From a virus: 64,000 bases of DNA. The stretch covers positions 64,001 to 128,000 of IMG/VR virus record IMGVR_UViG_3300012582_000005, one strand, 5' to 3'. Numbering within the stretch: the stretch's first letter is position 1; the number at the start of each line of letters is the position of its first letter. Position numbers and translations under genes: made by a program. The notes beneath the pieces are model-generated. The model worked only from the letters and a program-made list of their open reading frames with translations. It was not told where the DNA came from and did not search any database. Of the stretch, positions 5,817-51,352 are shown in pieces.

Positions 5817-5833
5817 ACTTTTTAATTTTAGTA

Positions 5834-5922
5834 GCGTGTAAAGGATTCGAACCTATGTTTTTATCTGAAAAGATACTGTCCTACCGAAGAGTTACCCTCT
5901 TCCCACTAGACGAACACGCCAA
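5834..5922 (-). tRNA. tRNA-Glu-like (TTC) with hairpin inserted in the D-loop
   Basis: The minus strand has acceptor GGCGTGT/ACACGCT, 'TTCGTCTAGTGG...GTAGGAC' as in bacterial tRNA-Glu, T-loop TTCGAAT and discriminator A. The D-loop contains an extra hairpin GAAGAG-GGTAA-CTCTTC, making the gene 89 bases. The anticodon arm TATC-TTTTCA-GATA has a 6-base loop containing TTC, and the T-stem has one T-T mismatch. A glutamyl-tRNA synthetase gene lies at 49751. Confidence 0.65.
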
Positions 5923-7695: not shown

Positions 7696-7703
7696 GATTG
7701 GAA

Positions 7704-8183
7704 TTAGAAATATGAGTTAGTTACCCTTAAATCATAATCTACAAAACCTTCAAATTTAACATCATCAACTTCAATAAGACGTTTATGAATTTTATCATCG
7801 TTCCAACCTCTATTTTCCATTCTTTTAATAAGAATATCACGTGGAATATCAAGGTATATTATAAAATATTATTTTCTTATTTCTTTTGGTATTTGTTTAA
7901 TGCCATCAGTGGACATAATTAATATATTACCTTCCGTATCTATGGGTGTTCCATAATAATCACCATTAAATTCTTCCCATTCGAGTAATTTATCATTCTC
8001 AATTAATTCCTTGAATTCATTTTTAGATACAAAATTATAATCTTTACCATTAACTTCATCATTCTCTATTCTAATAGCTCTTGATGTATAGCTTATGGAT
8101 GGTATATATCCTCTTGAAATGAATCTTTCTTTAAGATATGTTTTACCACACCCGCATTTTCCCGCTATAATTATTTTATTCAT
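7704..8183 (-). pseudogene. gmk: Guanylate kinase-like gene interrupted by an in-frame TAA
   Basis: The first part (stop at 7869-7871) reads MNKIIIAGKCGCGKTYLKER (P-loop) followed by 'PSISYTSRAIRIENDEVNGKDYNFVS' and 'EWEEFNGDYYGTP', the GMP-binding features of guanylate kinases. Directly after TAA the same frame continues for 54 codons: 'YFIIYLDIPRDILIKRMENRGWNDDKIHKR...FVDYDLRVTNSYF', which is the missing C-terminal lid/core region. So one nonsense codon splits an otherwise intact kinase of about 160 residues. It could be a true pseudogene, readthrough, a sequencing error or two cooperating fragments. An upstream in-frame ATG at 8195 is also possible. Confidence 0.75.
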
Positions 8184-8463
8184 CGTAAATATCATTTATT
8201 CTTTTTTTCCTTACTTCAAATTTATCTATTTTAATATCGGAATAACACCATTTCCAAAAAATACTATTAGAAAAACTTTCCTTATAATAAGAAGTTTCAT
8301 ATCTTCTAAATACTAAATCTTTTTGTGAATCTTTTAAATATGACCACCATTCTTTATATGAAGATGGCATTTTACTAATCATTTTCATTATAAATTTATT
8401 TTCTTCACGTTTTAAATAACGTTCCGATGGTTGCCAATTATCTTTCTTTTCTTGCCAGTTCAT
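8176..8463 (-). CDS. Hypothetical protein
   Basis: 95 residues, rich in Trp, Lys and Tyr ('SSYKEWWSYLKDSQKDLVFRRYE'), not recognised. It overlaps the start of the kinase gene and is probably its operon partner. It follows the nusA terminator, so it may have its own promoter. Confidence 0.6.
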   Translation of the reverse strand: MNWQEKKDNWQPSERYLKREENKFIMKMISKMPSSYKEWWSYLKDSQKDLVFRRYETSYYKESFSNSIFWKWCYSDIKIDKFEVRKKRINDIYDE

Positions 8464-8465: not shown

Positions 8466-8491
8466 TTAAAAAGGGCGTTTTTCAACGCCCA
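8466..8491 (-). terminator. Rho-independent terminator after nusA
   Basis: Minus strand GGGCGTT/AACGCCC stem with a short loop and a following T tract, 10 bases past the nusA stop. Confidence 0.85.
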
Positions 8492-8499: not shown

Positions 8500-9771
8500 C
8501 TATTCAAATTCATTTGATAAAATTTGTATTACATCATCTATTGTTTCTTCTTCTAAATCAGTTCTTTTTATTAAATCTTTTTTATCAGATGCTAAAATTT
8601 GTTTAGCTGTATCCAAACCAACTTTTCTAAATTCGTTTATAATCCATGCTTCAATTTCATCAGAAAATTCTTGTAAATCAACATCATCTTCGTCAATTGC
8701 GACAGTTTTTCTGAATATTTCAACAGTTTTACCTAATATTCTACTTGCTAATTTAATATTAACTCCTTTTCTACCAATTGCTAAAGGAACTTGATCGTTA
8801 TTTAAGAAAACAATTATTTTATTTTCTTCAATTTTTACATCGGAGACTTTAGCAGGAGAAAGAACGCGATGAATAAGTAAATCGAAATTTTCAGTATAGT
8901 TAATAATATCAATGTTCTCATTTCTCAATTCTTTTACTATAGTATTTATTCTACTTCCTTTTGAACCAACACAAGCACCAACTGGATCTACTCTATCATC
9001 ATATGATTCAACTAATATTTTAGCTTTTTCACCTGGTTCTCTAACAACATATTTAATGGAGATTAGTCCATCGCCAACTTCTGGAATTTCATTCTCCATT
9101 AAACGTTCTAAAAATAAAGAATTTGTTCTCGATAGAATAATTACAGGTTTACCTTTAAAAGTATCAATTTTATGAACCAATGCTTTAATTGTATCACCTT
9201 TTTTATATCTGTCTGCAAATATTTGTTCTTCTTTAGGTAAAATAAGTTCTTTACCAAGAGCATCATGAATTATAATACTTCTATTATTAGTAAAACCAAT
9301 TACTTCACCATGAATTATTTCACCTAGTAGCTCTTCGTATCTTTCGGTTAATAAGTGGTTGTCCCAATCCTTTATTTTTTGAAGAAGTGCTTGTTTTGCT
9401 ATAAGTACATTTCTTCTACCGAAATCATCAATTTTAATTTCTTCTGAGCACTGTTCGCCTATTTCAAAATCATCAGCAATCTTTATTGCTTCTGTATGAG
9501 AAATATGTTTGTTTTCATCGTAATCAAAACTGTCTTCTGCGAATTCATCATCGACAATTTCTCTATTTCTCCAAATCTCTAAATCACCCTTTTCTATATT
9601 AACAATTACATTAAAATTAGTATCATCACCATATTTCTTTTTAACTATGGTTTTAAATACATCTTCTATAATTCTAATTGTAGTAGGTCTATCTATATTC
9701 TTTGTTTTAGCAAATTCTGCAAAAGAGCTTACTAAAGTATTTTCTTCTTTATTTATTTTCATTTTCTTCAT
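8500..9771 (-). CDS. nusA: Transcription elongation/termination factor NusA
   Basis: 423 residues, close to the length of Bacteroidota NusA. The order is complete: N-terminal RNA-polymerase-binding domain (1 to about 130, 'IIEDVFKTIVKKKYG', 'GDLEIWRNREIV'), S1 domain ('LGEIIHGEVIGFTNNRSIII...LILPKEEQI'), then KH1/KH2 with 'SRTNSLFLERLMENEIPEV', 'VDPVGACVGSKGSRINTIV', 'ENIDIINY' and 'PLAIGRKGVNIKLASRI'. NusA binds RNA polymerase and controls pausing, termination and antitermination. A phage copy could retune host polymerase on phage templates. The start may instead be the fourth-codon ATG. It overlaps the upstream 75-residue gene by 23 bases. Confidence 0.95.
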   Translation of the reverse strand: MKKMKINKEENTLVSSFAEFAKTKNIDRPTTIRIIEDVFKTIVKKKYGDDTNFNVIVNIEKGDLEIWRNREIVDDEFAEDSFDYDENKHISHTEAIKIADDFEIGEQCSEEIKIDDFGRRNVLIAKQALLQKIKDWDNHLLTERYEELLGEIIHGEVIGFTNNRSIIIHDALGKELILPKEEQIFADRYKKGDTIKALVHKIDTFKGKPVIILSRTNSLFLERLMENEIPEVGDGLISIKYVVREPGEKAKILVESYDDRVDPVGACVGSKGSRINTIVKELRNENIDIINYTENFDLLIHRVLSPAKVSDVKIEENKIIVFLNNDQVPLAIGRKGVNIKLASRILGKTVEIFRKTVAIDEDDVDLQEFSDEIEAWIINEFRKVGLDTAKQILASDKKDLIKRTDLEEETIDDVIQILSNEFE

Positions 9772-9976
9772 TTAATTTTTTATATAATTCCGTATTATCT
9801 TCATCCAATAAGCATAACTCTTTATTTTCTTCGTCTACAAATCCAGAAATTATAGGTAAATCATACATATAAGTATTATTATCTTCTTCTGTTCCAAAGC
9901 TTCTAATAACAAGTTCAAAGTTTTGAAACTCTTCAGGTAAAGATCCTAGGAATTCTACTAAATCTTTTATTTTCAT
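9749..9976 (-). CDS. Small hypothetical protein upstream of nusA
   Basis: 75 residues, acidic, with 'MKIKDLVEFLGSLPEEFQNFELVIRS'. This resembles short phage proteins that begin 'M-x-x-x-L-I-x-x-L-x-x-x-P-x-x-A', but no function is clear. It overlaps nusA, so the two are probably translated together. Confidence 0.6.
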   Translation of the reverse strand: MKIKDLVEFLGSLPEEFQNFELVIRSFGTEEDNNTYMYDLPIISGFVDEENKELCLLDEDNTELYKKLNEENENK

Positions 9977-12700: not shown

Positions 12701-15019
12701 TTAAATTTCTCCTAATCTATACTGTAATTCCTCATTAAATTGAGCATTAGATACATCACCCTGCCATCCACGATGCGGAATATTAACTGTAGTAAATCGT
12801 GGTTCATCTATATTAAAATCTTCCCAATCTTCATAATAACGTTTTATAGCATTAAGAATTTTTTTATCATCGTATTTTACCGCTATTAACCATTCGTATT
12901 TAAATTGAAATCTTGGCCCACTTTCTACATCATCCATTACAATAGTAGTAATATCAACAAGTCTATCTGTGATTTTATCATACGCTTGTTCTAAATCAGC
13001 ATTTTCTTGTGCATTATTCATAGAATATTTTATAGCATCACTAATATCTTTATAATCAGTTTTAAGAACTAGCCGTATCAATTTACCAGAAATATTATTT
13101 CTAAATATATCTTTCCAATTATCATTCCACACAAGTTCATTTTCTTCGAACCAAGACTTAATAATAGCAATATCATTTTCCATTAATGTTAATATAGTTT
13201 CTCTATTTTTTTCATTTATTGTAGAAAAATCAATATCATTTAAAGAATATTCTATATAACCATAATCCCAACTCCCGCTTAAAATATCTTTTGCATATTT
13301 TCTTGATGATATTCTGTGATAAACTTTATCACTATCATTAAACATAAAAATTAATTGAATATACTCTTCAAATGAAACCCATAAAAAATCATCTTTATAC
13401 ACTAAATCGGATACACCACATTTTTTTATTTTATCGCCAATATTATTATTTTCAATCAAGCCATATTTCATTAAACTAAGTAAGTTGGAAACATTATTAT
13501 TTTTTAGAATATCTGGTTTATATTTTAATATTACTTCCGCACATTCTTTATTGGTAGCTTCATATAAAGCTATACCATGCTCTATCCATTGTTTATCAGT
13601 ATGATTTAAAATTGTATTAAGAATTTCAGGATCTTTTATATGTCCTGGTATTTTAAAGTTACCATCATATTCCCAATCTTTGTACTTTATTAGATTATTT
13701 TGTTGTTTAACTATGTCAGCTATTTCTGAACTAAATGATATGTAATCTCCAAATCTATTTTCGTATATTGCAGTTTCTACCACACATAAACCATCGGCTT
13801 CATCATTTGTATTATCAATACCTAAAGCAACTATAGCATCCCCGATACCATTTCGATTTTTTTTAAATAATATGTAAACAGTTTCAAAATTATTTGGATC
13901 CAATAAATCATCATTATCGTCATCTATCATCCACACATAATCATCATATTCTTTTAATACTTTTGCATTGGGATTAATTATTCTATTTCCAAAAACATCT
14001 TTATTTCTGTTATAATAGATTTTTTCTTCATTACCTCCAGATTGAGAACGAAATTTAAGATACCAGTTATGTAATTTACTACTTTTATAAACTTCATTAT
14101 ATAAAAATGGTTGAAATTTACCATCTATATACTCATATCCTAAATATGCAAACGTATCCATATAAGGCATTTCTACAGCATCCCATTCTATATTAGGTAC
14201 AGAAACTTTTAAAAGCGGTAACTCTTTAGATGTTTTACCATCAGTTATAGCATATCTCCCACTACTTTGAGTTTCTTTATACCACCACCCTATTTCTCTT
14301 GCATATGCTTTAAATGATTCTTCTAATGCTGAATCAATGGTGTATATTCTATCCATAAATGTAAATATTTTACCATTATCATTATTATCGATAACATTAT
14401 CCCATATAATGGCTCTACCCATAACTTTATTGTTTTCATTATTCAATAAAACTAAAAGTTTGCATGGTGTATCATTATTGTAGTAAATAGAGAAGAAATC
14501 TTGTGCATTAGTGCCTCTCATACAACTATTTATAAGAGATGAATCACCAACCATACTAAATCTATCGTAATTATCTTCGTAGTAATATTTCTTTATGGAT
14601 GCTTCGTCTTTTGCTAAAACAAATCTTGTTGGTTTTTGCTTGGATTTATATTCATTTACAAATTTCTCTATTTCTGATTCTGAATAATGTACACCTAATT
14701 TAATTACTATAGCTTTCGCTAATTTACCAATAGAAATCTTTTGTCTACCTCTAACATTCCATTTGTCTGCTATTTCTTGACCATTATCTCTGTTAATTTC
14801 TCTATTAGCAGGTAAATAAGAAACTAAACCATCTTCCTTATCAAAATCTATATAAGAATTATCAACTACATCAGCACTCTCTTCCTGTGCTTTTAACAGA
14901 GTTTTAGCTACAGGGCTTTCCATAGTTTTAAGGATTTTAACCAATTCATCACTACAAACTACAACTTTTTCTAAAATTAAACCTTCAAATAAAAAATCAA
15001 ATCTTTTTAAATATTTCAT
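12701..15019 (-). CDS. Large SCM/DRIY-family paralogue A, leader-bearing
   Basis: 772 residues, the longest member of a six-gene family in this window. Order: leader MKYLKRFDFLFE|GLILE; 'NSYIDFDKEDGLVSYLPANRE' (54-73); 'KISIGKLAKAIV ... EIEKFVNEYKS' (94-126); core with S165-C166-M167-R168, 'GRAIIWD' (201-207), 'MDRIY' (222-226), 'WWYK', 'SSGRYAITDGK' and 'MPYMDTFAYL'; then a long, unshared C-terminal half. The invariant Cys is a candidate catalytic residue, but no family is recognised. The leader and late-type motif suggest a virion-packaged effector. Confidence 0.8.
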   Translation of the reverse strand: MKYLKRFDFLFEGLILEKVVVCSDELVKILKTMESPVAKTLLKAQEESADVVDNSYIDFDKEDGLVSYLPANREINRDNGQEIADKWNVRGRQKISIGKLAKAIVIKLGVHYSESEIEKFVNEYKSKQKPTRFVLAKDEASIKKYYYEDNYDRFSMVGDSSLINSCMRGTNAQDFFSIYYNNDTPCKLLVLLNNENNKVMGRAIIWDNVIDNNDNGKIFTFMDRIYTIDSALEESFKAYAREIGWWYKETQSSGRYAITDGKTSKELPLLKVSVPNIEWDAVEMPYMDTFAYLGYEYIDGKFQPFLYNEVYKSSKLHNWYLKFRSQSGGNEEKIYYNRNKDVFGNRIINPNAKVLKEYDDYVWMIDDDNDDLLDPNNFETVYILFKKNRNGIGDAIVALGIDNTNDEADGLCVVETAIYENRFGDYISFSSEIADIVKQQNNLIKYKDWEYDGNFKIPGHIKDPEILNTILNHTDKQWIEHGIALYEATNKECAEVILKYKPDILKNNNVSNLLSLMKYGLIENNNIGDKIKKCGVSDLVYKDDFLWVSFEEYIQLIFMFNDSDKVYHRISSRKYAKDILSGSWDYGYIEYSLNDIDFSTINEKNRETILTLMENDIAIIKSWFEENELVWNDNWKDIFRNNISGKLIRLVLKTDYKDISDAIKYSMNNAQENADLEQAYDKITDRLVDITTIVMDDVESGPRFQFKYEWLIAVKYDDKKILNAIKRYYEDWEDFNIDEPRFTTVNIPHRGWQGDVSNAQFNEELQYRLGEI

Positions 15020-21918: not shown

Positions 21919-22608
21919 ATGAAAAAAATAGAAAAAACTATGAATTTAGATAAAGACTTTGCACTATTTGCTAAATCTAAAGGTGTACCTTCCACCACAT
22001 TAGATAAATATAAAAAACTATTTCCACAAGCATCTTTAACACCTGCTATAGTAGAAGAGAGAAATTTAAATATTGCTATAATGGATGTCTTTTCGAGATT
22101 AATGATGGATAGAATTATTTTTTTAGGAACTGAAATTGATGATTATGTTGCAAATGTTATATCCGCACAATTTCTTTATTTAACATCTATAGATAAAACG
22201 GCTGATATTAAACTTTACATTAATAGCCCAGGTGGTTCTGTTTATGATGGTAATTCCATTCTCGATGTAATGGATTTAGTTGAAACTGATGTAGCAACTG
22301 TTTGTACAGGATTAGCAGCTTCTATGGCTGCTGTAATTTTAAGTCATGGTACAGAAGGAAAAAGATGTTCACTTAGTAGAAGTAGAGTTATGATACACCA
22401 ACCTCTTGGTGGAACTTGGGGACAAGCATCTGATATAGAAATTGAAGCTAAAGAAATTAAAAAAATTAAGAGAGAATTAGTACAAACATTAGCAGATAAC
22501 ACAAAACAACCATTTAAGAAGGTATGGAGAGATTGTGATAGAGATAAATGGTTAGATGCTAAAGAAGCATTAGGTTATGGATTGATTGATAAAATTCTAA
22601 GTAAATAA
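21919..22608 (+). CDS. clpP: ATP-dependent Clp protease proteolytic subunit ClpP
   Basis: 229 residues. Catalytic triad: S135 in 'GLAASMAAVIL', H160 in 'VMIHQPLGGTWGQASD', and an Asp in 'RDCDRDKWLDAKEAL'. 'LYINSPGGSVYDGNSILD' is also diagnostic. ClpP forms a barrel that degrades unfolded proteins fed by ClpX/ClpA. No Clp ATPase is in the window, so it may use the host's. With the phage tmRNA at 33570 it could degrade tagged products. It starts a run of overlapping genes (TAATG with the next). Confidence 0.95.
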   Translation: MKKIEKTMNLDKDFALFAKSKGVPSTTLDKYKKLFPQASLTPAIVEERNLNIAIMDVFSRLMMDRIIFLGTEIDDYVANVISAQFLYLTSIDKTADIKLYINSPGGSVYDGNSILDVMDLVETDVATVCTGLAASMAAVILSHGTEGKRCSLSRSRVMIHQPLGGTWGQASDIEIEAKEIKKIKRELVQTLADNTKQPFKKVWRDCDRDKWLDAKEALGYGLIDKILSK

Positions 22609-26307: not shown

Positions 26308-27294
26308 ATGTACACAAATGAAATAACACAAAATATGAAAACAGGAATAATAGTAGCTCGATTTCAAAATCATACCCTTCATGAAGGTCAAAGATTTCTT
26401 GTAGATACAGTAATAAAAAATCACAAAAGAGTTATTATTTTCTTGGGAGTAACGCCTGTTATGTCAAGAAAAAACGCATTGGATTATAAGAATAGAGAAA
26501 TGATGGTTAAATCTTTATATCCATCGATAGAAATTTACCCACTTTATGATCACAAATCTAATGAAGATTGGGTAATAAGTTTAGAAGGTATAATCAATGA
26601 ATTAATACCCGATAAAAATGTAGTTCTATATGGTAGTAGAGACTCGTGTATTAATACGTATTTAAGACATGGTGGTAAATATAAATCTATAATTATTCCA
26701 CAAAAAGAAAATCATAATGCCACAGAATTAAGAGAAATAACAGCAAATGAATATATCAATTCTGATGATTTTAGAAAAGGTATTATATATGCACAATACA
26801 ATAATTTTTACCCTACAGCGTTCGCTACAGTAGATGTTATTGCAACTAGATTTTTAGATGGTGAATTAGAAGTTCTTCTTGGTCAAAAATCATATGAAGT
26901 AGGTAAGAACTTATGGAGAATTCCTGGTGGATTTATAGATCCTACTGATGAATTTGGTAGAGATACTGCATCAAGAGAACTTTGTGAAGAAACTTGTATT
27001 AGTGCATCACCATCATTATTTAATATCATTGATCAAGTAAGAGTAAATGATTGGAGATATATTGGTACTGAACATAGTATCATGACTACTATTTATTCTG
27101 TACATATTGGTTCAGGATGGCATGATAAAGTAATTAATAGTCATGCTAAAGCAAGTGATGATTTAGCTAAAGTAAAATGGTTTAAATTTTCAGAACTCAA
27201 TTTAGAAGAAGGTGTAGTAAGAGAACATAGAAAGTGTCTTAACATATTCATGAATCATCCACATTTTCAATATATTCAAAAACAACAAGCATAA
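26308..27294 (+). CDS. nadM: NMN adenylyltransferase / Nudix hydrolase (NadM-Nudix)
   Basis: 328 residues. The N-terminal nucleotidyltransferase domain (about 10-165) has 'TGIIVARFQNHTLHEGQ' (the G-x-F-x-x-H-x-G-H region), 'FLGVTPVMSRKNALDYKNREMM' and 'HNATELREI'. The C-terminal Nudix domain (about 175-325) has 'WRIPGGFIDPTDEFGRDTASRELCEET'. Such fusions make NAD from NMN and ATP and hydrolyse ADP-ribose or related compounds. It lies 17 bases before NAMPT. The true start may be the second Met (MKTGIIVARF). Confidence 0.92.
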   Translation: MYTNEITQNMKTGIIVARFQNHTLHEGQRFLVDTVIKNHKRVIIFLGVTPVMSRKNALDYKNREMMVKSLYPSIEIYPLYDHKSNEDWVISLEGIINELIPDKNVVLYGSRDSCINTYLRHGGKYKSIIIPQKENHNATELREITANEYINSDDFRKGIIYAQYNNFYPTAFATVDVIATRFLDGELEVLLGQKSYEVGKNLWRIPGGFIDPTDEFGRDTASRELCEETCISASPSLFNIIDQVRVNDWRYIGTEHSIMTTIYSVHIGSGWHDKVINSHAKASDDLAKVKWFKFSELNLEEGVVREHRKCLNIFMNHPHFQYIQKQQA

Positions 27295-27311
27295 AAAATA
27301 AATTTAATATT

Positions 27312-28892
27312 ATGGAAACAAATACAGATACAATTACTTTAAATAGAGAAACTAGAAGACTATTACTAAGATTTTCTAATAAAGCCATTAATAATGTTAT
27401 GACAAAAGATGCTGTAATCAAAGCATTAGAACGTGCATTACAATCTATTGAGCCGAATTTAATTTTATTAACTGATGCATATAAATATTCACATCCGAAG
27501 TTTTATACACCAGGTTTAACTAAAATGATTTCGTATTTAGAATCTAGAGGTGGTAAATTTCAAGAGACTGTAATGTTTGGTATTCAATATATTTTGAAAA
27601 AATATTTAGTTGGTAGTGTTTTATCCGAATATATGGTAGAAGAGGCTGAAGAGAAGTTGAATGGTGAAAATGGTGTTTTTGGTAAAGACGGTTCTTTCTC
27701 TAAAGAACAATGGTTAAAAATGATTAAAAAGCATGATGGGAAATTCCCAATAAGAATAAAATCTGTACCTGAAGGTGCTGTAGTACCTGTTAAAAATGTT
27801 CTTGCTTTAATTGAAAGTACTGATGATGAATTCCCTTGGGTAACAGGATTTATTGAATCATTATTTCTTGAAATTTGGTATCCAATCACTGTAGCAACAT
27901 TATCAAGAGAAGTTAAAAAAGTTGTAGTTGAATATCTCATCAAGACTGGTGCTAATCCAGCAATGATTCCAACAATGGTACAATTTATTTTAAATGATTT
28001 TGGATTCAGGGGCGCATCAAGTGTTGAATCAGCAAGTATAGGCGGGGCATCACATTTAGTCAATTTCATGGGATCTGACAACGTTGCTGGTTCTGATATG
28101 CTAATGAAATTTTATAATACTAAAACAATGTGGGGAAAATCTATTGATGCTACAGAACATTCTATTTGTACAATGGAGGGAGAAGATGGAGAGCTTGAGG
28201 TATTTAAACGTGTATTACTATCTAAACCAAAGGGATTAGTTGCGTGTGTTTCTGATTCATTTGACATTTTAAGGGCATGTATGCAATATTGGGGAACAGA
28301 CTTACGTGATATTATTTTAGCAAGAGAAGGTACTTTAGTAATTAGACCTGATAGTGGTGATCCTGTAATGACTCTAAAAGCAGTATTTAAAATTCTATTT
28401 GATAAATTTGGATATACTGTAAATGAGAAAGGCTTTAAAGTATTACCACCACAAGTAAGAGTTATTCAAGGTGACGGCGTTAATTATGATTCTATCAAAG
28501 CTATGTACCAAGCATTAATGGAAAATGGTATAGCATCAGAAAATTTAGTTCTTGGTATGGGTGGAAAGCTTTTACAAGCAGGAATTGATAGAGATTTACA
28601 AAACTTTGCAATTAAAACATGTTTTGCAATTATTAATGGTAAAGAAGTTGACATTGTTAAATCACCAAAAGAAATTGATAAAGATGGTAACATCAAAGTT
28701 AGTTTCAAAAAATCTAAAAAAGGTATGATGAAATTAGTCAAAACTTCTGATGGTGGTTATTACACAATTACATCTGCTGAAGAAGGTTATAATGAAGCTA
28801 AATGTGAATTGGTAACTATTTTTGAAAATGGTGTTTTATTAGTAGATGATAGTATTGAAACAATTCGTCAAAGAGCCGAATTAGTATATTAA
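27312..28892 (+). CDS. nadV: Nicotinamide phosphoribosyltransferase (NAMPT)
   Basis: 526 residues, slightly longer than typical. 'LTDAYKYSHPKFYTPGLTKMISYLESRGG', 'VEYLIKTGANPAMIPTMVQFILNDFGFRGASSVESASIGGASHLVNFMGSDNVAG', 'EHSIC', 'VSDSFDILRA', 'VIRPDSGDP' and 'GMGGKLLQAGIDRDLQNFAIKTC' are the family blocks. It converts nicotinamide and PRPP to NMN, which NadM then turns into NAD. This pair is the two-step NAD-restoring pathway reported in phages that counters NAD-depleting defences. About 50 N-terminal residues precede the usual core start. Confidence 0.95.
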   Translation: METNTDTITLNRETRRLLLRFSNKAINNVMTKDAVIKALERALQSIEPNLILLTDAYKYSHPKFYTPGLTKMISYLESRGGKFQETVMFGIQYILKKYLVGSVLSEYMVEEAEEKLNGENGVFGKDGSFSKEQWLKMIKKHDGKFPIRIKSVPEGAVVPVKNVLALIESTDDEFPWVTGFIESLFLEIWYPITVATLSREVKKVVVEYLIKTGANPAMIPTMVQFILNDFGFRGASSVESASIGGASHLVNFMGSDNVAGSDMLMKFYNTKTMWGKSIDATEHSICTMEGEDGELEVFKRVLLSKPKGLVACVSDSFDILRACMQYWGTDLRDIILAREGTLVIRPDSGDPVMTLKAVFKILFDKFGYTVNEKGFKVLPPQVRVIQGDGVNYDSIKAMYQALMENGIASENLVLGMGGKLLQAGIDRDLQNFAIKTCFAIINGKEVDIVKSPKEIDKDGNIKVSFKKSKKGMMKLVKTSDGGYYTITSAEEGYNEAKCELVTIFENGVLLVDDSIETIRQRAELVY

Positions 28893-29664: not shown

Positions 29665-31236
29665 ATGTTACATCCAATGCTATTTTTCGATGATTTTCTA
29701 AATGAAGAAAAAGAAGAAATGAGAGATGATCATTACTTTAATAGAATTGATAAGGGTGAAGTATCAGGTTTAAAATTCAGAAATTGGGAAAAGATTTCAC
29801 ATTATATTAAACTCCTTCAAGCTAACCCAGAAGGTATGACGCTTACAAAATTAGTTGGTGTTAATCCAATAACTAAACAAAAAGAAAATACTAACAGTTA
29901 TGCAAGACATATAAGTTGGTTGTATTTAAAGAAATTAATAACAATTAAGAAAGGTGAAAGAAGAGGACAGGCTCATACTATTAAACCAACCGAAAAATTA
30001 TTGGCTTTGACACCAGAACAAATAGAAAATCCACTATCTATAGGAAATAAGGAATTTTTAAGCTCTAAAATTATTGAGATTTTAGAAAAATTTCCCAAGG
30101 ATGATAAAATAGCACAATTTATTTTAAGTTTAGAAAATAATAAAGAATCTCTTCAACATTTATATTTGAATATTGAAGGTGAACCAGGTATGGTAAGTTT
30201 CCTACCAGCTAATAGAGAAAAAAATGTCGAGAATGAAGAATTTTGGAAAAATAGATATAGACAAACAACATCGATAGGTAAACTAGTAAGAGCTTTGATG
30301 CAAAAAGAAGGACAATCTTTTGCGGATGTAGAAATTGAAAAATTTGGTAATACTTTTAAATCTATTCAATTGGAAGTTACTATCTTTAAAAACTTTCAAA
30401 TAGTACAAGGACAAGATATTAAAAAATGGTATAATTATTCGAGTTATCAAACATCAGGTTTCGAGGAATCACCATTAAATAAAAGTTGCATGAAACATGA
30501 TAAGTGTGATAATTACTTTACTGTTTATACAGATAATCCTAATGTATCATTATTAATATTATTAAATGATGATGGTAAATTAATGGGTAGAGCTATTGTA
30601 TGGAATGGTGTTGAAATGGAAGATGGTAAGAAAATAAATTTCATGGATAGAATTTACTATAATTCTGAAGCAGAAGTAGAATTATTTAAAACATTTGCTA
30701 AAAGAAAAAATTGGTGGTTTAAAGTAGTTCAATCACATAAAGATAGTACAATTTCAAATGGAAGCATTACATATAATGATGTGTTAAAATTTGAGTTGCC
30801 TAATGTTGGATGGAGTAGGATATCCAAACCATACTTAGATACTTTAAAATATTTTAACAATACTACAGGTTCATCAAATAATGAATTTAAGAATTCTGAA
30901 TATAGATTACTTCAACCAGGTGAAAAAATAAAAATAACTGCTGATATAGCAAAGTATGGTTGGGCGGATATGATTAAATATATTGGTAAAGTATTTACAG
31001 TTAGAGATAGTAATGATACTCTATTTAAAGGTACGATGAGAGGGTATTATTTTACAGAGAGTGAAATTTCTGATTACTTTGTACCAGCCGATTGTGTTGA
31101 ACCATTAAATAATCCAGGAACATATAAATTAAAAATTAAAGATAGTAAGAATCCTAAATATTATCTATCCTCTAAAATGACAAATAATACTAAACAACAA
31201 TGGTCTTCCACAGACGGTACATATAAACCTGTATAA
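29665..31236 (+). CDS. Large SCM/DRIY-family paralogue B, leader-bearing, with winged-helix-like insert
   Basis: 523 residues. Leader MLHPMLFFDDFLNE|EK (L-N-E at 12-14). Residues about 43-112 ('HYIKLLQANPEGMTLTKLVG...NSYARHISWLYLKKLITIKKGERRGQAHTIKPT') look like a winged-helix domain, absent from the other members. The shared part follows: 'GMVSFLPANRE', 'SIGKLVRAL', S274-C275-M-K, 'GRAIVWNG', 'FMDRIYY', 'NWWFK' and 'KPYLDTLKYF'. The C-terminus 'PGEKIKITADIAKYGWADMIKYIGKVFTV' is SH3-like. Only member on the plus strand. Confidence 0.8.
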   Translation: MLHPMLFFDDFLNEEKEEMRDDHYFNRIDKGEVSGLKFRNWEKISHYIKLLQANPEGMTLTKLVGVNPITKQKENTNSYARHISWLYLKKLITIKKGERRGQAHTIKPTEKLLALTPEQIENPLSIGNKEFLSSKIIEILEKFPKDDKIAQFILSLENNKESLQHLYLNIEGEPGMVSFLPANREKNVENEEFWKNRYRQTTSIGKLVRALMQKEGQSFADVEIEKFGNTFKSIQLEVTIFKNFQIVQGQDIKKWYNYSSYQTSGFEESPLNKSCMKHDKCDNYFTVYTDNPNVSLLILLNDDGKLMGRAIVWNGVEMEDGKKINFMDRIYYNSEAEVELFKTFAKRKNWWFKVVQSHKDSTISNGSITYNDVLKFELPNVGWSRISKPYLDTLKYFNNTTGSSNNEFKNSEYRLLQPGEKIKITADIAKYGWADMIKYIGKVFTVRDSNDTLFKGTMRGYYFTESEISDYFVPADCVEPLNNPGTYKLKIKDSKNPKYYLSSKMTNNTKQQWSSTDGTYKPV

Positions 31237-33312: not shown

Positions 33313-33387
33313 CACTCTGTACGTCAATTTGGTTAGACTGTTGGGATTCTAACCCCGACAATGCAGGTTCGAGTCCTGTCAGGGTGA
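33313..33387 (+). tRNA. tRNA-Arg (TCT), possibly with 8-base anticodon loop
   Basis: Acceptor CACTCTG/CAGGGTG, D-stem GTC/GAC, T-stem GCAGG/CCTGT with loop TTCGAGT, discriminator A followed by CA. The best anticodon stem is GTTGGG/CCCGAC (one G-T pair), leaving loop ATTCTAAC (8 bases); a 7-base loop needs a mismatched stem. The anticodon is read as TCT, which serves AGA, a codon common in AT-rich genomes. Confidence 0.8.
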
Positions 33388-33484
33388 CAATATTAAATAG
33401 TATGTAGAAAAGTGGGAAAAAATGACAAATTTTTACAAATATATAAATAACATTTTAAACAAATAATCGTTTATTATAATACAT

Positions 33485-33569: not shown

Positions 33570-33926
33570 GGGGGTGAAAACGTATAGATTGGCTGTACTC
33601 GTGTTAAATTTGCAAGTCGTGTAATTGTTATGAACACGTTAATTCAACTAACAAAAAGTTAAATGACAACGTTAATTCGTTTGAGCAATCAATTCTTAAT
33701 GAGTTGTTCGCTCCAGTTGAAATGGCAGTAGCTGCTTAATACCATTTCAAAACTGTCGTAAAAAGGCACAAAAAACAGTTTGGCTCTTCTGTAAAAAGAA
33801 CATAGATAATTTACCAGTTGGCTCACTATCCAATTTATTATCGAAAACTCTAAAGTGAGATAAACTTGTAGTAGATTTAATGTTAGCAGAACAAGACCTC
33901 GATGTCGTAATCGAGCATCTCCACCA
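33570..33926 (+). ncRNA. ssrA: Transfer-messenger RNA (tmRNA)
   Basis: A 357-base RNA without a proper ORF. The 5' end GGGGGTG (33570-33576) pairs fully, with G-T wobbles, with CATCTCC (33916-33922), followed by an encoded ACCA end. A T-arm CTCGA/TCGAG precedes this end. An internal frame ends in ...EMAVAA-TAA (stop 33737-33739), matching the small, Ala-Ala-terminated proteolysis tags of tmRNAs. Its upstream codons read NELFAPV and before that SFEQSIL. Pseudoknot-like pairings probably fill the rest. It frees stalled ribosomes and tags products for ClpXP-type proteases. It lies in tandem with two tRNAs. Confidence 0.85.
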
Positions 33927-37356: not shown

Positions 37357-37384
37357 GAAAGTCCTGGATTATTTCAGGACTTTC
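37357..37384. terminator. Terminator hairpin
   Basis: GAAAGTCCTG (37357-37366) pairs with CAGGACTTTC (37375-37384), and overlaps the end of paralogue C. The preceding 37310-37356 is unusually GC-rich with small inverted repeats (ACTT..AAGT, AGC..GCT) and may be part of the 3' structure. Confidence 0.75.
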
Positions 37385-39285
37385 TTCATTACAGATTTTT
37401 TTATAACCTTCTTCACAATTTTTTTCTTATCTTTAACTTTTTTATCAACAATTTCTTTTAAAATATATTTGTTCATAAGATTATCTTTATTTCCATAACT
37501 AATTAATTTAGCACCCATTTTATTAACTAATTTAGCAATCGACTTAGTATCTAAAACATCAACATCAATACATTTTATATTAATGATATTCTTAACTTTT
37601 TTAAATAGGTTATTTGTATTATCTGTATTAAAAATAACTTTTAACACACCCATAGTAATACCACTACAAAAAATGTAATCCATTGCCTGCGATTTCAAAG
37701 TTTTCAATGCATTCTTATCCATCATACTGATTATATCATCGATACAAATAATTTTATCTAAAAATTGTATTGCACAAACATGCGCAAAATTTTGTTTTTT
37801 GATATATTTTATTATTTTATTCATTTTAACATTTTTGTTATCACTTTTATTTATACCTAAAAGTGGATAATCTAATGTATCATAACGATATGAATAAAGA
37901 GAAGGAATATCTCGTATAAAACTATATTTTTGTGTATTTCTCTCTTTGATTCTTCTTTCTAAAATATTTACAAGTTTATCTATATTTTGTCCTTCTGATA
38001 AAATATCAGTAAGCAATTTATAAAAATTATTAGGTTTTAATTGTCTTACGCTTAAATTTTGTAAGATATATTTATCAATTCTTTTCCGATAAATTTTATC
38101 TATTAAATCTGTATGTTGTTGAATAATTGTGTTTATTGGTACAAATTTAGAAAAATCAATTTCAGACAAACAATTAATATTATCCTTAACAAACTTTGAA
38201 AGTTGTCCATTATATTTAACTAAATTATATTTTTTATTTTTCAAAAAGAAAACATCATCTTTAAATTTAATATTATCAACTTTAACTTTGAAATGTTTAG
38301 AGAGAATACCCAATCGTTTTAATATAGAATCATATCCACGATTTTCATTATAGCCACCATTAACGGCTGTCCAATATTCCACACTTTTACCATCTTTGTT
38401 TCCTAAGTATAACATCAATTCACCATTAACTAAATCTTCTTTAAGATACTTCATAGTATCCATATAAGGCTTCTTTAAAGAACACCAATTCAACAACGGT
38501 ATATTAGCTTTAATATTAGGATTACTCAAAGTAGTCTTACCATTATTTAATATAAAGCTATCACTACTCTGTCTTTCTTTACACCACCAACTTTTAGAAT
38601 GAATATAATCTTTTACAGTTGAAAGAAATCTATCATCATAACAATAAATTCTATCAACATAAGTTTGATTTTTTACCTTACCTATAATAGAATTATGCCA
38701 TACGATAGCTCTTGAAAGAAGTTTTTCATTTTTGTCGATACAGACAAGCATAGAAACATTCTTATTTTTAGTATAAACTGATAAAAAAGTTCCACAAAGA
38801 TTGTGTCTCATGCAGCTACCATTTAAACTACTATCATTTATATCTTTAGCATAATTAATAAAATTATACCATTTCTTAATATCATCACCTTTAACTAATT
38901 CGAATCTAAATTTAGATTCGGATGATCTAAATTTATTCGAAAAATCTTCAATATCGGAATCAGTAAATTTAATATTCTTAGCTTCTAATACTGAACGAAT
39001 TACCGCACCTACACGGACATTTGTCCTACTTTTTATTATCCATTTCTCATTATCTGATATTTCTTTACCCGTTCTAAAGTCAACTTCTTTATTAGTACTT
39101 AAATAACTAACCATTCCATCTTCTGTAGAAATATCTATATAACTAAACTTTATATCTAAAGCTTCTCTCTTTTTATGTAAATTAATTAAATTCTTGGAAA
39201 TGAAATGATTAATCTTAGATAATTTATCAAGCATTTTATCACTTAATATAATAGCTTTTGTAGATTTTTGTTTTGTATTAGGCAT
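37369..39285 (-). CDS. Large SCM/DRIY-family paralogue C, no leader
   Basis: 638 residues from ATG at 39285 (MPNTKQKSTKAIILSDKML); upstream only a TTG is available. Shared core: 'FSYIDISTEDGMVSYLSTNKE', 'GSCMRHNLC', 'SRAIVWHNS', 'TYVDRIYCYD', 'WWCKERQSS', 'NNGKTTLSNPNI' and 'KPYMDTMKYL'. The C-terminus is long, Ile/Lys-rich and unique, ending in a Lys/Val-rich basic tail. No capsid-targeting leader, and a host-type promoter instead of the late motif, so this member may act early from inside the cell. Confidence 0.8.
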   Translation of the reverse strand: MPNTKQKSTKAIILSDKMLDKLSKINHFISKNLINLHKKREALDIKFSYIDISTEDGMVSYLSTNKEVDFRTGKEISDNEKWIIKSRTNVRVGAVIRSVLEAKNIKFTDSDIEDFSNKFRSSESKFRFELVKGDDIKKWYNFINYAKDINDSSLNGSCMRHNLCGTFLSVYTKNKNVSMLVCIDKNEKLLSRAIVWHNSIIGKVKNQTYVDRIYCYDDRFLSTVKDYIHSKSWWCKERQSSDSFILNNGKTTLSNPNIKANIPLLNWCSLKKPYMDTMKYLKEDLVNGELMLYLGNKDGKSVEYWTAVNGGYNENRGYDSILKRLGILSKHFKVKVDNIKFKDDVFFLKNKKYNLVKYNGQLSKFVKDNINCLSEIDFSKFVPINTIIQQHTDLIDKIYRKRIDKYILQNLSVRQLKPNNFYKLLTDILSEGQNIDKLVNILERRIKERNTQKYSFIRDIPSLYSYRYDTLDYPLLGINKSDNKNVKMNKIIKYIKKQNFAHVCAIQFLDKIICIDDIISMMDKNALKTLKSQAMDYIFCSGITMGVLKVIFNTDNTNNLFKKVKNIINIKCIDVDVLDTKSIAKLVNKMGAKLISYGNKDNLMNKYILKEIVDKKVKDKKKIVKKVIKKSVMKKVLK

Positions 39286-39303
39286 ATTTTTTATATTATA
39301 TAC

Positions 39304-39334
39304 CAAATATACTAATATTTATTTAAGTCTACAA
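39304..39334 (-). promoter_or_regulatory. Bacteroidota housekeeping-type promoter
   Basis: Minus strand: TTG (39332-39334), 20 bases, TATATTTG (39304-39311), 18 bases before paralogue C. Confidence 0.75.
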
Positions 39335-39388: not shown

Positions 39389-41419
39389 TTAAGGAAATTT
39401 GTCCACAATATAACAAAATTTATCACCACGAATTTCAGCTTTGACTTCTACATTAGGAAAATTTAATCTAAGCCATTTTTGAACATATGAAATTCTAGTA
39501 TTTTTTCCGAATTCTGTATTAGATTCTAATATTTCATTAATTGCAAAAGATGGATTATTAGTTAAAATATTTTTTATAGCAAATTCTCTGATTTTTTCCG
39601 TATTTTCTTTTATTATGTTAAGCAAATATGTAGTATTAACACTTTGTACAAATTCATTGAAATATTTTCCTATAAAATTCATTTTTACTTGACGACTATT
39701 TGCTATATATTCGTTATACATTTCAATTACATCTTTATCTTGTAAAACAACTGTTCTAATATATTCTTTACACATTTTTATAACTGCACTTTCTCCACCA
39801 ATATTATATTCATTTTCAATAATAGAAATTAAATAGCGTTTACTTTTTTCATCATCTTTAAGCTTTGTGTAATATTCATTTTCCAAAGCATTAATATCAC
39901 CATCTATATTAATATTTAATTCAAAATTATCATTTAAAATTATACCAAATGTTATAGGCCTTAACACAATTATAAATTCTCTAACCTTAGAAAAATTTTC
40001 ATTAATTTCTTTAGACATTATTTGCACACCTAATATCTTTTGAATGAAGTTTCTTATTTCAGAACTATCAATTCCCTTAATATAAACATTAGTATTTTCT
40101 AGCATATCCATCATTATATCAGAGCGATATTCTTCACATAAAACTTTTGAACCAATTTTTCTAACAAGTTCGTGCGTTTCATAATTCGAAATAAATGGTT
40201 TTAATTTCATTATATCTTCTTCGCTTTCATTTCTTATCACACTTGATATAATAGTTGAATAGTAATTCATAACTAAAACATTTTTATCATCTACTTTCCA
40301 TATCTCAGGATTTCCATTTATTTTAGTAGGATTTGCTAATAATAAATTATTAAAATCTAATCCTGTATTGGATGATAAATCTCTAACTTCTTTAAGTGTA
40401 TCAACATAATATCTATTGGAAATAAAAAATCCATTTGTTTCGTCCCATTTTTGTTTCCAGTTTGAAGCATTTTGCATGAAATAATTAAATAAAACTGGAA
40501 TATATTTACCATCAATAACATCATATGAAAAATATCTCAATGAGTCCATATATGGTTTTTCCCAAGTTTCCCAATCACCATCAGGTAATATAACTTTTAT
40601 ATTAGGATGTTCTATTACCAACTTACCATTGCTCACAACATAATATTCTGATCCTTGTTTTGTTTTACAATACCAACCGTTAGAATGTGCATATGATTTA
40701 AATTTATCGGTGATAGAATCACTAACCGCATATATTCTATCCATATAAACTTCTGGTTTACCATCTATAGTAGAATTATACCATACTATAGCTCTACCCT
40801 GTATCTTATCATCATCTGTCAATAAAATACATAATGATACATTAGGATTTTTAATATAGACACTAAAATACTCTTGACAACTATCATATCTCATACAAGA
40901 ATTAAACAATGAAGAATGTGAACTTTCATCCGACTCATGATCATAATTACCTTCAAAATAATATTTCTTTACATCATAACCTTTAACTAATTTAAAACTA
41001 CCTGTATTTTGTATAGCTTTATATTCGTTAATAAACTTTTCTAATTCAGATTCAGATTCAGATATATTGACATATGGTGATTTTTTCAATATAGCAGAAA
41101 CAATTTTACCTATAGAAACATCTTGTCTTTTTTTAGTGGCCCACTTTTCAGTTTCAGGTAATTCTTGTTTAGTTTGGAAATCTATTTCTCTATTAGCAGG
41201 AAGCCAAGAAACCATACCCAATTTAGGACTATATTCAATATAAGAATTATCAGTATCTTCTAAATTATCACCATGATCCATATTTACCATATACTTTGCA
41301 TATGGATGCTTCATATTTTTAAGTACATCTCTCATTTTTTCACCAAAATATAGTACTTTTTCAAGTAATAAGCTTTCTAATATTGCATCATATTGTAAAA
41401 ATCTCTTTAAATATATCAC
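39389..41419 (-). CDS. Large SCM/DRIY-family paralogue D, leader-bearing
   Basis: 676 residues, GTG start. The leader MIYLKRFLQYDAILE|SLLLEK has I-L-E at 13-15 and then resembles paralogue A ('FEGLILEKVV'). The core contains 'NSYIEYSPKLGMVSWLPANREI', 'VSIGKIVSAIL', 'LEKFINEYKAIQ', 'NSCMRYDSC', 'GRAIVWYNS', 'VYMDRIYAVSD', 'GWYCK' and 'EKPYMDSLRYF'. The C-terminus is unique and mostly helical. Late-type motif upstream. It lies tandem with paralogue C, so the two probably arose by duplication. Confidence 0.8.
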   Translation of the reverse strand: MIYLKRFLQYDAILESLLLEKVLYFGEKMRDVLKNMKHPYAKYMVNMDHGDNLEDTDNSYIEYSPKLGMVSWLPANREIDFQTKQELPETEKWATKKRQDVSIGKIVSAILKKSPYVNISESESELEKFINEYKAIQNTGSFKLVKGYDVKKYYFEGNYDHESDESSHSSLFNSCMRYDSCQEYFSVYIKNPNVSLCILLTDDDKIQGRAIVWYNSTIDGKPEVYMDRIYAVSDSITDKFKSYAHSNGWYCKTKQGSEYYVVSNGKLVIEHPNIKVILPDGDWETWEKPYMDSLRYFSYDVIDGKYIPVLFNYFMQNASNWKQKWDETNGFFISNRYYVDTLKEVRDLSSNTGLDFNNLLLANPTKINGNPEIWKVDDKNVLVMNYYSTIISSVIRNESEEDIMKLKPFISNYETHELVRKIGSKVLCEEYRSDIMMDMLENTNVYIKGIDSSEIRNFIQKILGVQIMSKEINENFSKVREFIIVLRPITFGIILNDNFELNINIDGDINALENEYYTKLKDDEKSKRYLISIIENEYNIGGESAVIKMCKEYIRTVVLQDKDVIEMYNEYIANSRQVKMNFIGKYFNEFVQSVNTTYLLNIIKENTEKIREFAIKNILTNNPSFAINEILESNTEFGKNTRISYVQKWLRLNFPNVEVKAEIRGDKFCYIVDKFP

Positions 41420-49084: not shown

Positions 49085-49687
49085 TTAAGAACCTACTACA
49101 ACTTTTGCGTAGCGAATAACTTTATCATTTAATAAATATCCTTTCTCTAAGATATCTACTATTTTACCTTTCATACCTTCCGTTGGTATTTGTGTAATTG
49201 CCTCATGTAATTCTGGTGTAAAATCTGCTCCCATACAATCCATAATCTTTACACCCTTGGCTTCTAATACTTTTACAAGTCCATTATAAACCAATTTAAC
49301 ACCTTCGTCATCAGTTACTAAAATAGCTCTTTCGAAGTTATCTAATGTTGGTAAAATTGATTTGATTACACTTTCCCCAGCATTTGTTAATATTTCAGTT
49401 TTTTCTTTTGCAGTTCTTTTACGAAAATTATCAAAATCTGCATATAATCTCAAGTGTTTGTTATTTGCTTCTGCCAATTCTTTTTCTAATATGTCAGTAT
49501 CAACAACTCTCTTAGCATAGGAATATAACATACCTGGTAATAAAGTTCTCAATTTAACATCTTCAATATCAAACATACGTTCTTCTGTATATGCCGAAAT
49601 ATAATCACCTGCACCAGTTACAGTATTTACAAGTTTTTCTTCACCATACAATAATGGATTTTCTTTTGTAGTTTCTTTATCTCCCAT
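49085..49687 (-). CDS. grpE: GrpE, nucleotide exchange factor of DnaK
   Basis: 200 residues. 'LEKELAEANNKHLRLYADFDNFRKRTAKEKTEILTNAGESVIKSILPTLDNFERAI' is the GrpE long helix, and 'LEAKGVKIMDCMGADFTPELHEAITQIPT...GKIVDILEKGYLLNDKVIRYAKVVV' the beta domain. The first 70 residues are unlike cellular GrpE. It speeds ADP release from DnaK and may adapt host chaperones for phage protein folding. No dnaK or dnaJ is in the window. It follows gltX, with a terminator between. Confidence 0.95.
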   Translation of the reverse strand: MGDKETTKENPLLYGEEKLVNTVTGAGDYISAYTEERMFDIEDVKLRTLLPGMLYSYAKRVVDTDILEKELAEANNKHLRLYADFDNFRKRTAKEKTEILTNAGESVIKSILPTLDNFERAILVTDDEGVKLVYNGLVKVLEAKGVKIMDCMGADFTPELHEAITQIPTEGMKGKIVDILEKGYLLNDKVIRYAKVVVGS

Positions 49688-49719
49688 GACTTAAATTTTT
49701 CATTTATAAAAAGTTTAAT

Positions 49720-49747
49720 AAAAATGGGGAGCTTTACTCCCCATTTT
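49720..49747 (-). terminator. Rho-independent terminator after gltX
   Basis: AAAAATGGGGAG / CTCCCCATTTT with a 5-base loop, 4 bases past the gltX stop. Confidence 0.85.
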
Positions 49748-49750
49748 TAT

Positions 49751-51352
49751 TTATGCTAATGCTGTTTTTAATCTACTAATAGTTTCTTCTTTTCCAAGAA
49801 TTTCAGAAGTAGTCATTAAATCTGGACCAGGGATACCACCTGTTAATGCCATTCTAAGAGAAGGCATTACTTTACCCATCTTAATTTCAACTTCATTACA
49901 GATGTCAAATATTTTTTGTTTAATAACATCACCTCTCCATTCAATACCTTCAGATTCATCAACAAATTTAGAGAACACTGTTTTAAATTCTGGCTCTATT
50001 TTAGTTGCATCAATTGCTGGCACACTGAAGAAAATATCAACAACCGCTTTAAAATCAGTTCTAAATACAGAACGTTCTTTTGCAAGCTCGGCAATTTTAT
50101 CGAGTTGTTCAGGTGTGTATTTATCTTTTTCTTCGTCAGAAATTCCAGATGATTTAAATACATCATCAGTTTTAGCTTTTTTCAAGTACTGTTGATTGAA
50201 CCAATCTGCTTTCTTAATATCAAATTTAGCACCAGCCTTTTGAATTCCTTCAAGTGAGAATGCATCCACTAGTTCATCCATTGACAACATCTCTCTATTA
50301 TCACCAGGAGACCAACCAAGTAAACATAGGAAATTTACAATAGCATCAGATTCATATCCTTTACCTTTGAAACCCATATTTACATTTTTATCACCCTTAT
50401 CATCAGTTTGTTCCCAATCAAGAGGGAATACTGGAATACCATATTCATTTGCTTTTCTCTTACTTAATTTACCTTTTCCATCAGGATTAAGTAATAGCGG
50501 TAAATGTGCAAATTTCGGAGGTGTCCAACCAAAAGCATCATACAACATAATGTGAAGTGGTGTAGACGGTAACCATTCTTCACCTCTAATTACATGGGTG
50601 ATTTCCATGTTATGGTCATCACAAATATTAGCAAAATGGTATGTTGGAATACCATCAGATTTAATAAGTACTTTATCATCTGTTTGGTTAGAGTTAAAAG
50701 ATACATTACCTCTAACAATATCAGTAAAACTGACAGTTTTATTTTCAGGTGTATTAAATCTTACAACATAATTACCTTCTTTGATTTTAGCTTCAACTTC
50801 TTCTTCTGACATTGTGAATGAATTTTTCATATTCATTCTCGTTTGTCTATTATAAGACCAATCTTGCCTATCACCACGCGCAGCAGTAAGTTCTTCCGAA
50901 CTATCAAATGCATAATATGCACCACCTTTAGCAATAAGTTCTTCAATGAAAGGCTTGTAATCTCTTTCAGATTGTCTGTATGGTGCATGTGGTCCACCAA
51001 CCCAAGGAGATTCATCTGGTGTAATACCTACCCACGCCAAGGCATCCTTAATGTAATCTTCTGCCGTGTCAACAAAGCGGGTTCTATCGGTATCTTCAAT
51101 CCTTAAAAGGAAATCACCGCCATGTTTTTTAGCAAACAAATAATTATAAATAGCAGTTCTCAATCCACCAATATGTAATCCACCTGTTGGCGATGGTGCA
51201 AATCTCACCCTAACTTTACCAGCTGGTGCATGATCGAGTTTTATTAGAGCATCTTTTTCTGTAGCAGGTAAATCCGCTGGTGTTTGACTTTCTTTCAAAA
51301 AATCAGAATAATCTTTCTTTAGATGCTTTTTATTCATGTCTTGTTTGCTCAT
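49751..51352 (-). CDS. gltX: Glutamyl-tRNA synthetase
   Basis: 533 residues. Class I signature 'RFAPSPTGGLHIGGLRTAIYNYLFAKKHGGDFLLRIEDTDRTR' (HIGH site at 60-63), 'HVIRGEEWLPSTPLHIMLYDAFGW', KMSKS-like 'GKGKLSKRKA' and a C-terminal anticodon-binding region. It charges tRNA-Glu with glutamate. An extra N-terminus of about 45 residues contains MNKKHLKKDYSDFLKE|S, which resembles the capsid-targeting leader, with L-K-E. The phage also has an unusual tRNA-Glu (5834). The promoter is of host type, suggesting early expression. Confidence 0.95.
   Translation of the reverse strand: MSKQDMNKKHLKKDYSDFLKESQTPADLPATEKDALIKLDHAPAGKVRVRFAPSPTGGLHIGGLRTAIYNYLFAKKHGGDFLLRIEDTDRTRFVDTAEDYIKDALAWVGITPDESPWVGGPHAPYRQSERDYKPFIEELIAKGGAYYAFDSSEELTAARGDRQDWSYNRQTRMNMKNSFTMSEEEVEAKIKEGNYVVRFNTPENKTVSFTDIVRGNVSFNSNQTDDKVLIKSDGIPTYHFANICDDHNMEITHVIRGEEWLPSTPLHIMLYDAFGWTPPKFAHLPLLLNPDGKGKLSKRKANEYGIPVFPLDWEQTDDKGDKNVNMGFKGKGYESDAIVNFLCLLGWSPGDNREMLSMDELVDAFSLEGIQKAGAKFDIKKADWFNQQYLKKAKTDDVFKSSGISDEEKDKYTPEQLDKIAELAKERSVFRTDFKAVVDIFFSVPAIDATKIEPEFKTVFSKFVDESEGIEWRGDVIKQKIFDICNEVEIKMGKVMPSLRMALTGGIPGPDLMTTSEILGKEETISRLKTALA

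What the first reader, a model, noticed from the sequence alone, without database searches (positions are those of the whole stretch)
8500..9771. Complete phage-encoded NusA
All NusA domains are present with strong resemblance to Bacteroidota NusA. Phages usually recruit host NusA (as in lambda antitermination) rather than bring one. A phage copy could compete with host NusA and switch termination behaviour.
Basis: partly seen in the sequence, partly recalled or inferred. Interest (0 to 1): 0.7.

Follow-up and report, generated by a model that had tools for sequence, protein, structure and literature searches.

The report
Huge phage carrying its own NusA
A 636-kilobase virus of Bacteroidota bacteria carries a complete, long-maintained copy of the bacterial gene for NusA, a core protein that steers how RNA polymerase pauses and stops; phages normally borrow the host's NusA, and different phages captured the gene at least twice.

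Summary
Window 8500-9771 (-) encodes a 423-aa full-length NusA (TIGR01953 321.8 bits, cut-off 253.4; NusA_N, KH1, KH2, an S1-like barrel in the AF2 model, and the Bacteroidota-type C-terminus). It is not contamination or a recent host insertion. The surrounding DNA is identical to the 636-kb uncultured phage LR756504.1 (size matches a complete genome in the Mahaphage clade, PMC7162821), the gene has phage base composition (GC3 0.125; sister bacteria 0.35-0.77), and it lies outside the bacterial rimP-nusA-infB context. It nests on a long branch within one Bacteroidota clade. Fourteen further IMG/VR records carry NusA, none with rimP or infB in the fetched DNA. The tree and AU tests require at least two captures. 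Purifying selection is shown in the other phages (dN/dS about 0.04-0.27). The same phage encodes NusG and sigma-like genes, but no RNAP beta, NusB, S10 or Rho was detected. Best explanation: phage NusA loads onto host RNA polymerase during infection and tunes pausing and termination at the phage's abundant intrinsic terminators. Function is inferred, not shown. I found no published report of phage-encoded NusA in the open-access library.

The parts
8500..9771 (-). nusA: 423-aa NusA, complete reading frame
9367..9735 (-). NusA N-terminal domain (residues 13-135), the RNA polymerase-binding part in known NusA
   Evidence: PF08529 1.9e-26; 27 of 27 invariant positions kept
9130..9318 (-). S1-type RNA-binding barrel (residues about 152-214)
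   Evidence: within TIGR01953 span; five strands in the model
8830..9036 (-). KH1 domain (residues 246-314)
   Evidence: PF13184 9.3e-27; DPVGACVGSKGSRI motif intact
8692..8829 (-). KH2 domain (residues about 315-360), motif LAIGRKGVNIKLAS
   Evidence: PF07650 5.3e-10
8503..8691 (-). Bacteroidota-type C-terminal helical region (residues 361-423)
   Evidence: 18 of 18 invariant positions kept; helices in the model
8468..8490 (-). intrinsic terminator about 10 bases after the nusA stop: GGGCGTTGAAAAACGCCC TTTTT
   Evidence: sequence
9749..9976 (-). 75-aa ORF of unknown function directly upstream, overlapping the nusA start by 23 bases (suggests co-transcription and coupled translation)
   Evidence: no family match

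Best explanation
It is a functional NusA captured long ago from a Bacteroidota host by a huge phage and kept for the phage's own transcription. Proposed mechanism: the phage protein binds elongating host RNA polymerase through its conserved N-terminal domain, lays nascent RNA on its S1-KH1-KH2 surface, and raises pausing and intrinsic termination at the hairpin terminators that punctuate phage operons. It would supplement or displace host NusA while phage NusG and phage sigma factors occupy the same polymerase at other steps. Shown: an intact, conserved, phage-resident NusA; no detectable phage RNA polymerase beta gene; co-encoded NusG and sigma-like genes; excess of intrinsic terminators; purifying selection in the other phage copies. 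Inferred: expression, polymerase binding, effect on termination, displacement of host NusA.
For: NusA equivalog-domain score above cut-off. Only 9 of 128 positions that are invariant in 62 Bacteroidota NusA are changed, 0 of 27 in the N-terminal domain, despite about 1.0-1.3 substitutions per site on its branch. Phage composition: nusA GC3 0.125, sister bacterial genes 0.35-0.77. No RNAP beta in the 636-kb genome, so transcription presumably uses host polymerase; NusG equivalog (145.3 bits, cut-off 135.7) and four sigma-70 region-2 hits, two over the cut-off. Terminator-like hairpins 13 against 3.5 (sd 2.1) expected in 1-20 kb and 14 against 4.5 (sd 2.3) in 40-60 kb, several immediately at gene 3' ends. 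Fourteen other viral records carry NusA, with dN/dS about 0.04-0.27 among ten full-length copies.
Against: No expression or binding data. The window gene has no close phage relative, so its own dN/dS cannot be measured. The other largest genomes retrieved (634, 642 and 735 kb) have NusG but no NusA over the cut-off, so NusA is not needed by all of them. Elevated rates may mean the protein has moved to another role.
Confidence: 0.6

Rival explanations
1. The phage NusA is a takeover tool against the host: it competes for RNA polymerase or for host Nus partners, weakening host rRNA antitermination or host NusA-dependent regulation, rather than serving phage terminators.
For: NusB and S10 (NusE) were not detected in the phage, so a phage NusA would have to work with or disturb the host's antitermination set. 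KH-domain positions, which touch RNA, hold eight of the nine changed invariant residues.
Against: The changed residues are mostly conservative and RNA-binding motifs are intact, which does not look like a dominant-negative form. The phage's own genes are rich in intrinsic terminators.
Confidence: 0.17
2. It makes transcription immune to something that acts on host NusA: a host defence, or an antiterminator or inhibitor of a competing phage that binds host NusA but not the phage version.
For: Known phage proteins target NusA or NusA-bound complexes (lambda N and Q; Xp10 p7: PMC4499122, PMC7171158, PMC6624301). The protein is diverged (at most 60% identical) while its polymerase-binding invariants are kept.
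Against: No such inhibitor or defence was identified here; invariant positions of the N-terminal domain, which lambda N contacts, are unchanged.
Confidence: 0.1
3. It is a host gene in transit: bacterial contamination of the assembly or a recent passive insertion with no role.
For: Most other 'phage' hits in the phage collection look like bacterial contamination; MT835665.1 is a rimP-nusA-infB contig.
Against: Identical in a separately deposited 636-kb phage record; phage composition; long branch with conserved invariants; phage neighbours; no rimP or infB beside the 14 other viral copies, with terminase or endolysin nearby in two.
Confidence: 0.02
4. NusA here works mainly outside termination, for example as an RNA-binding chaperone, in transcription-coupled repair, or in transcription-translation coupling.
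For: Cellular NusA has such roles (general knowledge); the phage also invests in translation and protein quality (GltX, GrpE, ClpP, tmRNA).
Against: No specific link found; the terminator excess points to the classical role.
Confidence: 0.1

Closest known systems
Bacteroidota chromosomal NusA (TIGR01953; e.g. loci L006, L007, L009, L010)
   Same: Same domain order, same C-terminus, 57-59% identity; window NusA nests inside this clade with 100% SH-aLRT support and shares the insertion FAEDSFDYDENKHIS with L006.
   Different: Carried by a phage, not between rimP and infB, AT-rich (GC3 0.125), long branch, followed by its own terminator.
NusA of other phages in IMG/VR (L004-type and L087/L088-type records)
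   Same: Full-length Bacteroidota-type NusA in phage genomes; members share ClpP and a repeated 'SCMR' protein family with the window.
   Different: 46-52% identical and from separate captures: one origin for all is rejected (AU p 0.0005), as is window with L088 (p 0.0003); window with the L004 clade weakly (p 0.038).
Phage-encoded NusG (636-, 634-, 642- and 735-kb phages; annotated nusG in Microcystis phage MaAM05)
   Same: A general elongation factor of the host type carried by a phage in which no polymerase beta gene was detected (636-kb genome).
   Different: NusG is more widespread among these phages; NusA over the cut-off only in the 636-kb one of the four.
Lambda N / Q and Xp10 p7 antitermination
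   Same: A phage acts on NusA-bound host elongation complexes.
   Different: Those phages encode small proteins that recruit or counter host NusA; this one encodes the NusA itself.

Membership tests
NusA (TIGR01953 / NusA family) | Whole-domain profile score above curated cut-off | tested here: met
   321.8 bits, cut-off 253.4, profile 3-338 of 340
NusA (TIGR01953 / NusA family) | N-terminal RNA polymerase-binding domain | tested here: met
   PF08529 1.9e-26; 27/27 invariant positions kept
NusA (TIGR01953 / NusA family) | S1 RNA-binding domain | tested here: met
   covered by TIGR01953; five-strand segment in AF2 model residues 152-214; no separate Pfam S1 hit
NusA (TIGR01953 / NusA family) | Two KH domains with GxxG-type motifs | tested here: met
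   PF13184 and PF07650 above cut-offs; VGSKGSR and IGRKGVN motifs
NusA (TIGR01953 / NusA family) | Fold of solved NusA | tested here: met
   top Foldseek PDB hits are NusA, e.g. 9a74, 4mtn, 1hh2; domain arrangement between chains differs, query-normalised TM 0.5-0.6
NusA (TIGR01953 / NusA family) | Binds RNA polymerase; stimulates pausing and intrinsic termination | not testable with these tools
   needs biochemistry
NusA (TIGR01953 / NusA family) | C-terminal AR1/AR2 repeats as in E. coli (not universal, so not defining) | tested here: not met
   protein ends with the about 60-aa Bacteroidota C-terminus, as its bacterial relatives do
Bacterial chromosomal nusA (contamination rival) | rimP-nusA-infB neighbourhood | tested here: not met
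   absent around the window gene and all 14 viral loci, several of which are short; present at most bacterial loci
Phage with its own multisubunit RNA polymerase (phiKZ-like) | RNAP beta gene | tested here: not met
   PF00562 no match in 636,363 bp; controls positive in 14 of 14; a highly diverged or split viral RNAP could be missed
Full phage-borne Nus antitermination set | NusB and NusE (S10) also encoded | tested here: not met
   PF01029 and PF00338 no match
Full phage-borne Nus antitermination set | NusG also encoded | tested here: met
   TIGR00922 145.3 bits, cut-off 135.7, in LR756504.1 463251-463808

The most novel reading that the evidence does not exclude
Some huge Bacteroidota phages replace both general elongation factors of the host polymerase, NusA and NusG, and add sigma factors, building a phage-specific elongation complex on a host enzyme, so that termination and coupling rules switch during infection without a viral polymerase.
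Probability: 0.3. Interest if true: 0.78.

Novelty: new member of a known kind. Interest (0 to 1): 0.55.

Why it matters
NusA is the textbook host factor that phages recruit. A phage that carries its own, together with NusG and sigma factors but no detectable polymerase beta gene, suggests takeover at the level of elongation and termination rather than initiation. Captures on at least two occasions, with purifying selection in the better sampled group, argue for a real benefit. It makes a direct test possible: does swapping NusA on host RNA polymerase change which terminators are read? It also offers a natural set of diverged NusA proteins for finding which surfaces matter.

Tried and rejected
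Contamination or recent host insertion: rejected. Single origin of all phage NusA: rejected; union of L088 with the L004 clade is not rejected (p 0.063), so 'three captures' is only suggested. Phage RNA polymerase beta, NusB, S10, Rho: none detected. NusG phylogeny: too short and long-branched to resolve; only its best matches (genomes of L009, L010, L006) hint at the same donor lineage as NusA. First viral scan with single-sequence peptides found nothing; alignment and DNA-motif scans worked. Hits in Listeria, Enterococcus, Salmonella and Acinetobacter 'phage' records were set aside as probable bacterial DNA without checking each. The viral structure library BFVD gave no NusA, only weak matches, mostly S1-domain proteins. 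The literature searches found no phage-encoded NusA; closed-access papers, preprints and the supplementary tables of PMC7162821 were not searchable, so it may be listed there unremarked.

Full report
What is there. The reverse-strand ORF 8500-9771 encodes 423 aa. It scores 321.8 bits against TIGR01953 NusA (cut-off 253.4) and carries NusA_N, KH_5 and KH_2 above their Pfam cut-offs. The closest solved structures are all NusA, and the AlphaFold2 model has mean pLDDT 86, pTM 0.61; individual domains fit well, while the relative domain arrangement differs between structures, as expected of a flexible protein. No PHROG matched it significantly, and no NusA turned up in the BFVD viral structure library.

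Where it is. The window is bases 64,001-128,000 of a 288,572-base IMG/VR record. Its first 29,771 bases are 100% identical to LR756504.1, a 636,363-bp phage genome. Al-Shayeb et al. 2020 (PMC7162821) report a complete, circular 636-kb genome and state that their five genomes of more than 634 kb fall in the Mahaphage clade with predicted Bacteroidetes hosts; the size match with LR756504.1 is my link, not an accession check. That paper's main text does not mention NusA or NusG. A second IMG/VR record of 347,857 bases (L156) carries the phage's NusG; the two lengths add up to 636,429, so the two records probably are the two parts of that genome (inference).

Not contamination and not recent. Nothing resembling rimP or infB is among the neighbouring ORFs. 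Its GC3 is 0.125, like other phage genes of the window (0.126-0.254), while nusA of the six sister bacteria measured has 0.354-0.766. The tree puts it within a Bacteroidota clade (loci L006, L007, L009, L010, L012, L014-L016, L020; titles name Chitinophagaceae, Cytophagaceae, Cytophagales, Aquirufa) with 100% SH-aLRT support, on a branch of 1.0-1.3 changes per site, against a median end branch of 0.08. The window and L006 also share the insertion FAEDSFDYDENKHIS, which is shorter in L004, L088 and L003. Despite the long branch only 9 of 128 Bacteroidota-invariant positions are changed: none of 27 in the N-terminal domain, 1 of 14 in S1, 4 of 54 in KH1, 4 of 15 in KH2, none of 18 in the C-terminus. 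That pattern indicates constraint.

Other phages. A NusA DNA motif found 14 IMG/VR records, none with rimP or infB within the fetched stretch (several stretches are short, and some records, such as L093, hold only part of the gene; some records are near-duplicates of each other). One (L098) has a terminase large subunit about 9 kb away; another (L088) has an endolysin about 1.6 kb upstream. Members share ClpP and the repeated 'SCMR' family with the window. Their NusA proteins are 46-52% identical to the window's. The tree separates three groups: the window; the L004-type clade; and L087/L088, nested among other bacteria (100% support). AU tests reject one clade of all phage NusA (p 0.0005) and window with L088 (p 0.0003), weakly reject window with the L004 clade (p 0.038), and do not reject L088 with the L004 clade (p 0.063). 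So at least two captures are supported, three are suggested; the sub-groups were named after seeing the tree and long branches are in play. Pairwise dN/dS among ten full-length copies is about 0.04-0.27 (synonymous distances above 1 in the L088 comparisons are unreliable): purifying selection.

Transcription gear of this phage. No RNAP beta match in the 636-kb genome; no NusB, S10 or Rho RNA-binding domain. It does encode a NusG above the equivalog cut-off (LR756504.1 463251-463808) and four sigma-70 region-2 hits, two of them over the cut-off; the two examined further are ECF-like. The 634-, 642- and 735-kb phage genomes also have NusG, but no NusA over the cut-off. Terminator-like hairpins are three to four times more frequent than in shuffled sequence (some palindromes are counted on both strands), and several sit immediately after genes, including one about 10 bases after nusA itself (8473-8490).

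How it probably works. The N-terminal domain is the part of cellular NusA that binds RNA polymerase; the S1-KH1-KH2 surface guides nascent RNA and favours hairpin-dependent pausing and termination (established knowledge of NusA). With these parts intact and no detectable viral polymerase beta, the simplest account is that the phage protein works on host polymerase and adjusts pausing and intrinsic termination for phage operons, alone or together with phage NusG. Why bring one rather than borrow is open: supply during a long infection, better fit to AT-rich phage terminators, or escape from factors that act on host NusA. None of these steps has been observed.

Novelty. NusA itself is a well-known family and this is a clear member. 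Phage-encoded NusG, sigma factors and translation factors are known. A phage-encoded complete NusA was not found in the open-access library or in PHROGs; absence from these sources is not proof that nobody has listed one.

Noticed in passing
LR756504.1 463251-463808 (+) (L100:1480-2040); outside the window: The same phage encodes a NusG above the TIGR00922 cut-off; related NusG genes occur in the 634-, 642- and 735-kb phage genomes and in Microcystis phage MaAM05.
   Followed up: yes
33570-33926 (+): A tmRNA (Rfam RF00023, 65 bits) next to two tRNAs; ARAGORN did not call it.
   Followed up: no
33313-33388 (+): A tRNA with an 8-base anticodon loop, called with a four-base anticodon UCUA (would read UAGA); a possible frameshift-type or stop-reading tRNA.
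   Followed up: partly
7700-8195 (-): Guanylate kinase gene interrupted by one in-frame TAA (PKEIRK*YFIIYLDIPRD); the rest of the protein continues in the same frame.
   Followed up: partly
12701-15019 (-), 29665-31236 (+), 37369-39306 (-), 39389-41419 (-), 54409-56661 (-), 62478-63995 (-): A paralogous family of about 500-770-aa proteins (core with SCMR and GRAI.W motifs), no Pfam match for the one tested, also present beside NusA in the other phages.
   Followed up: partly
starts of ORFs at 1061, 3706, 12701, 16299, 16775, 56665 (its high end) and others: Many unrelated ORFs begin with a leader like MKhLKrFxxFxNE, in the related phages too; it recalls (from memory) the capsid-targeting leaders of T4 internal proteins.
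   Followed up: no
57077-58564 (-): Family B DNA polymerase ORF that covers only the exonuclease and the first third of the polymerase domain; the rest must be elsewhere or missing.
   Followed up: no
26308-28892 (+), 49085-51352 (-), 21919-22608 (+): NAD-salvage genes (NUDIX protein and NAMPT), GrpE with GltX side by side, and ClpP: a broad set of host-type housekeeping genes.
   Followed up: no
L158:5010-5516 (+), IMGVR_UViG_3300030019_001127: A further, very diverged phage NusG (33% identical).
   Followed up: no
5832-5920 (-): A tRNA found by Rfam (35.9 bits) but not by ARAGORN.
   Followed up: no
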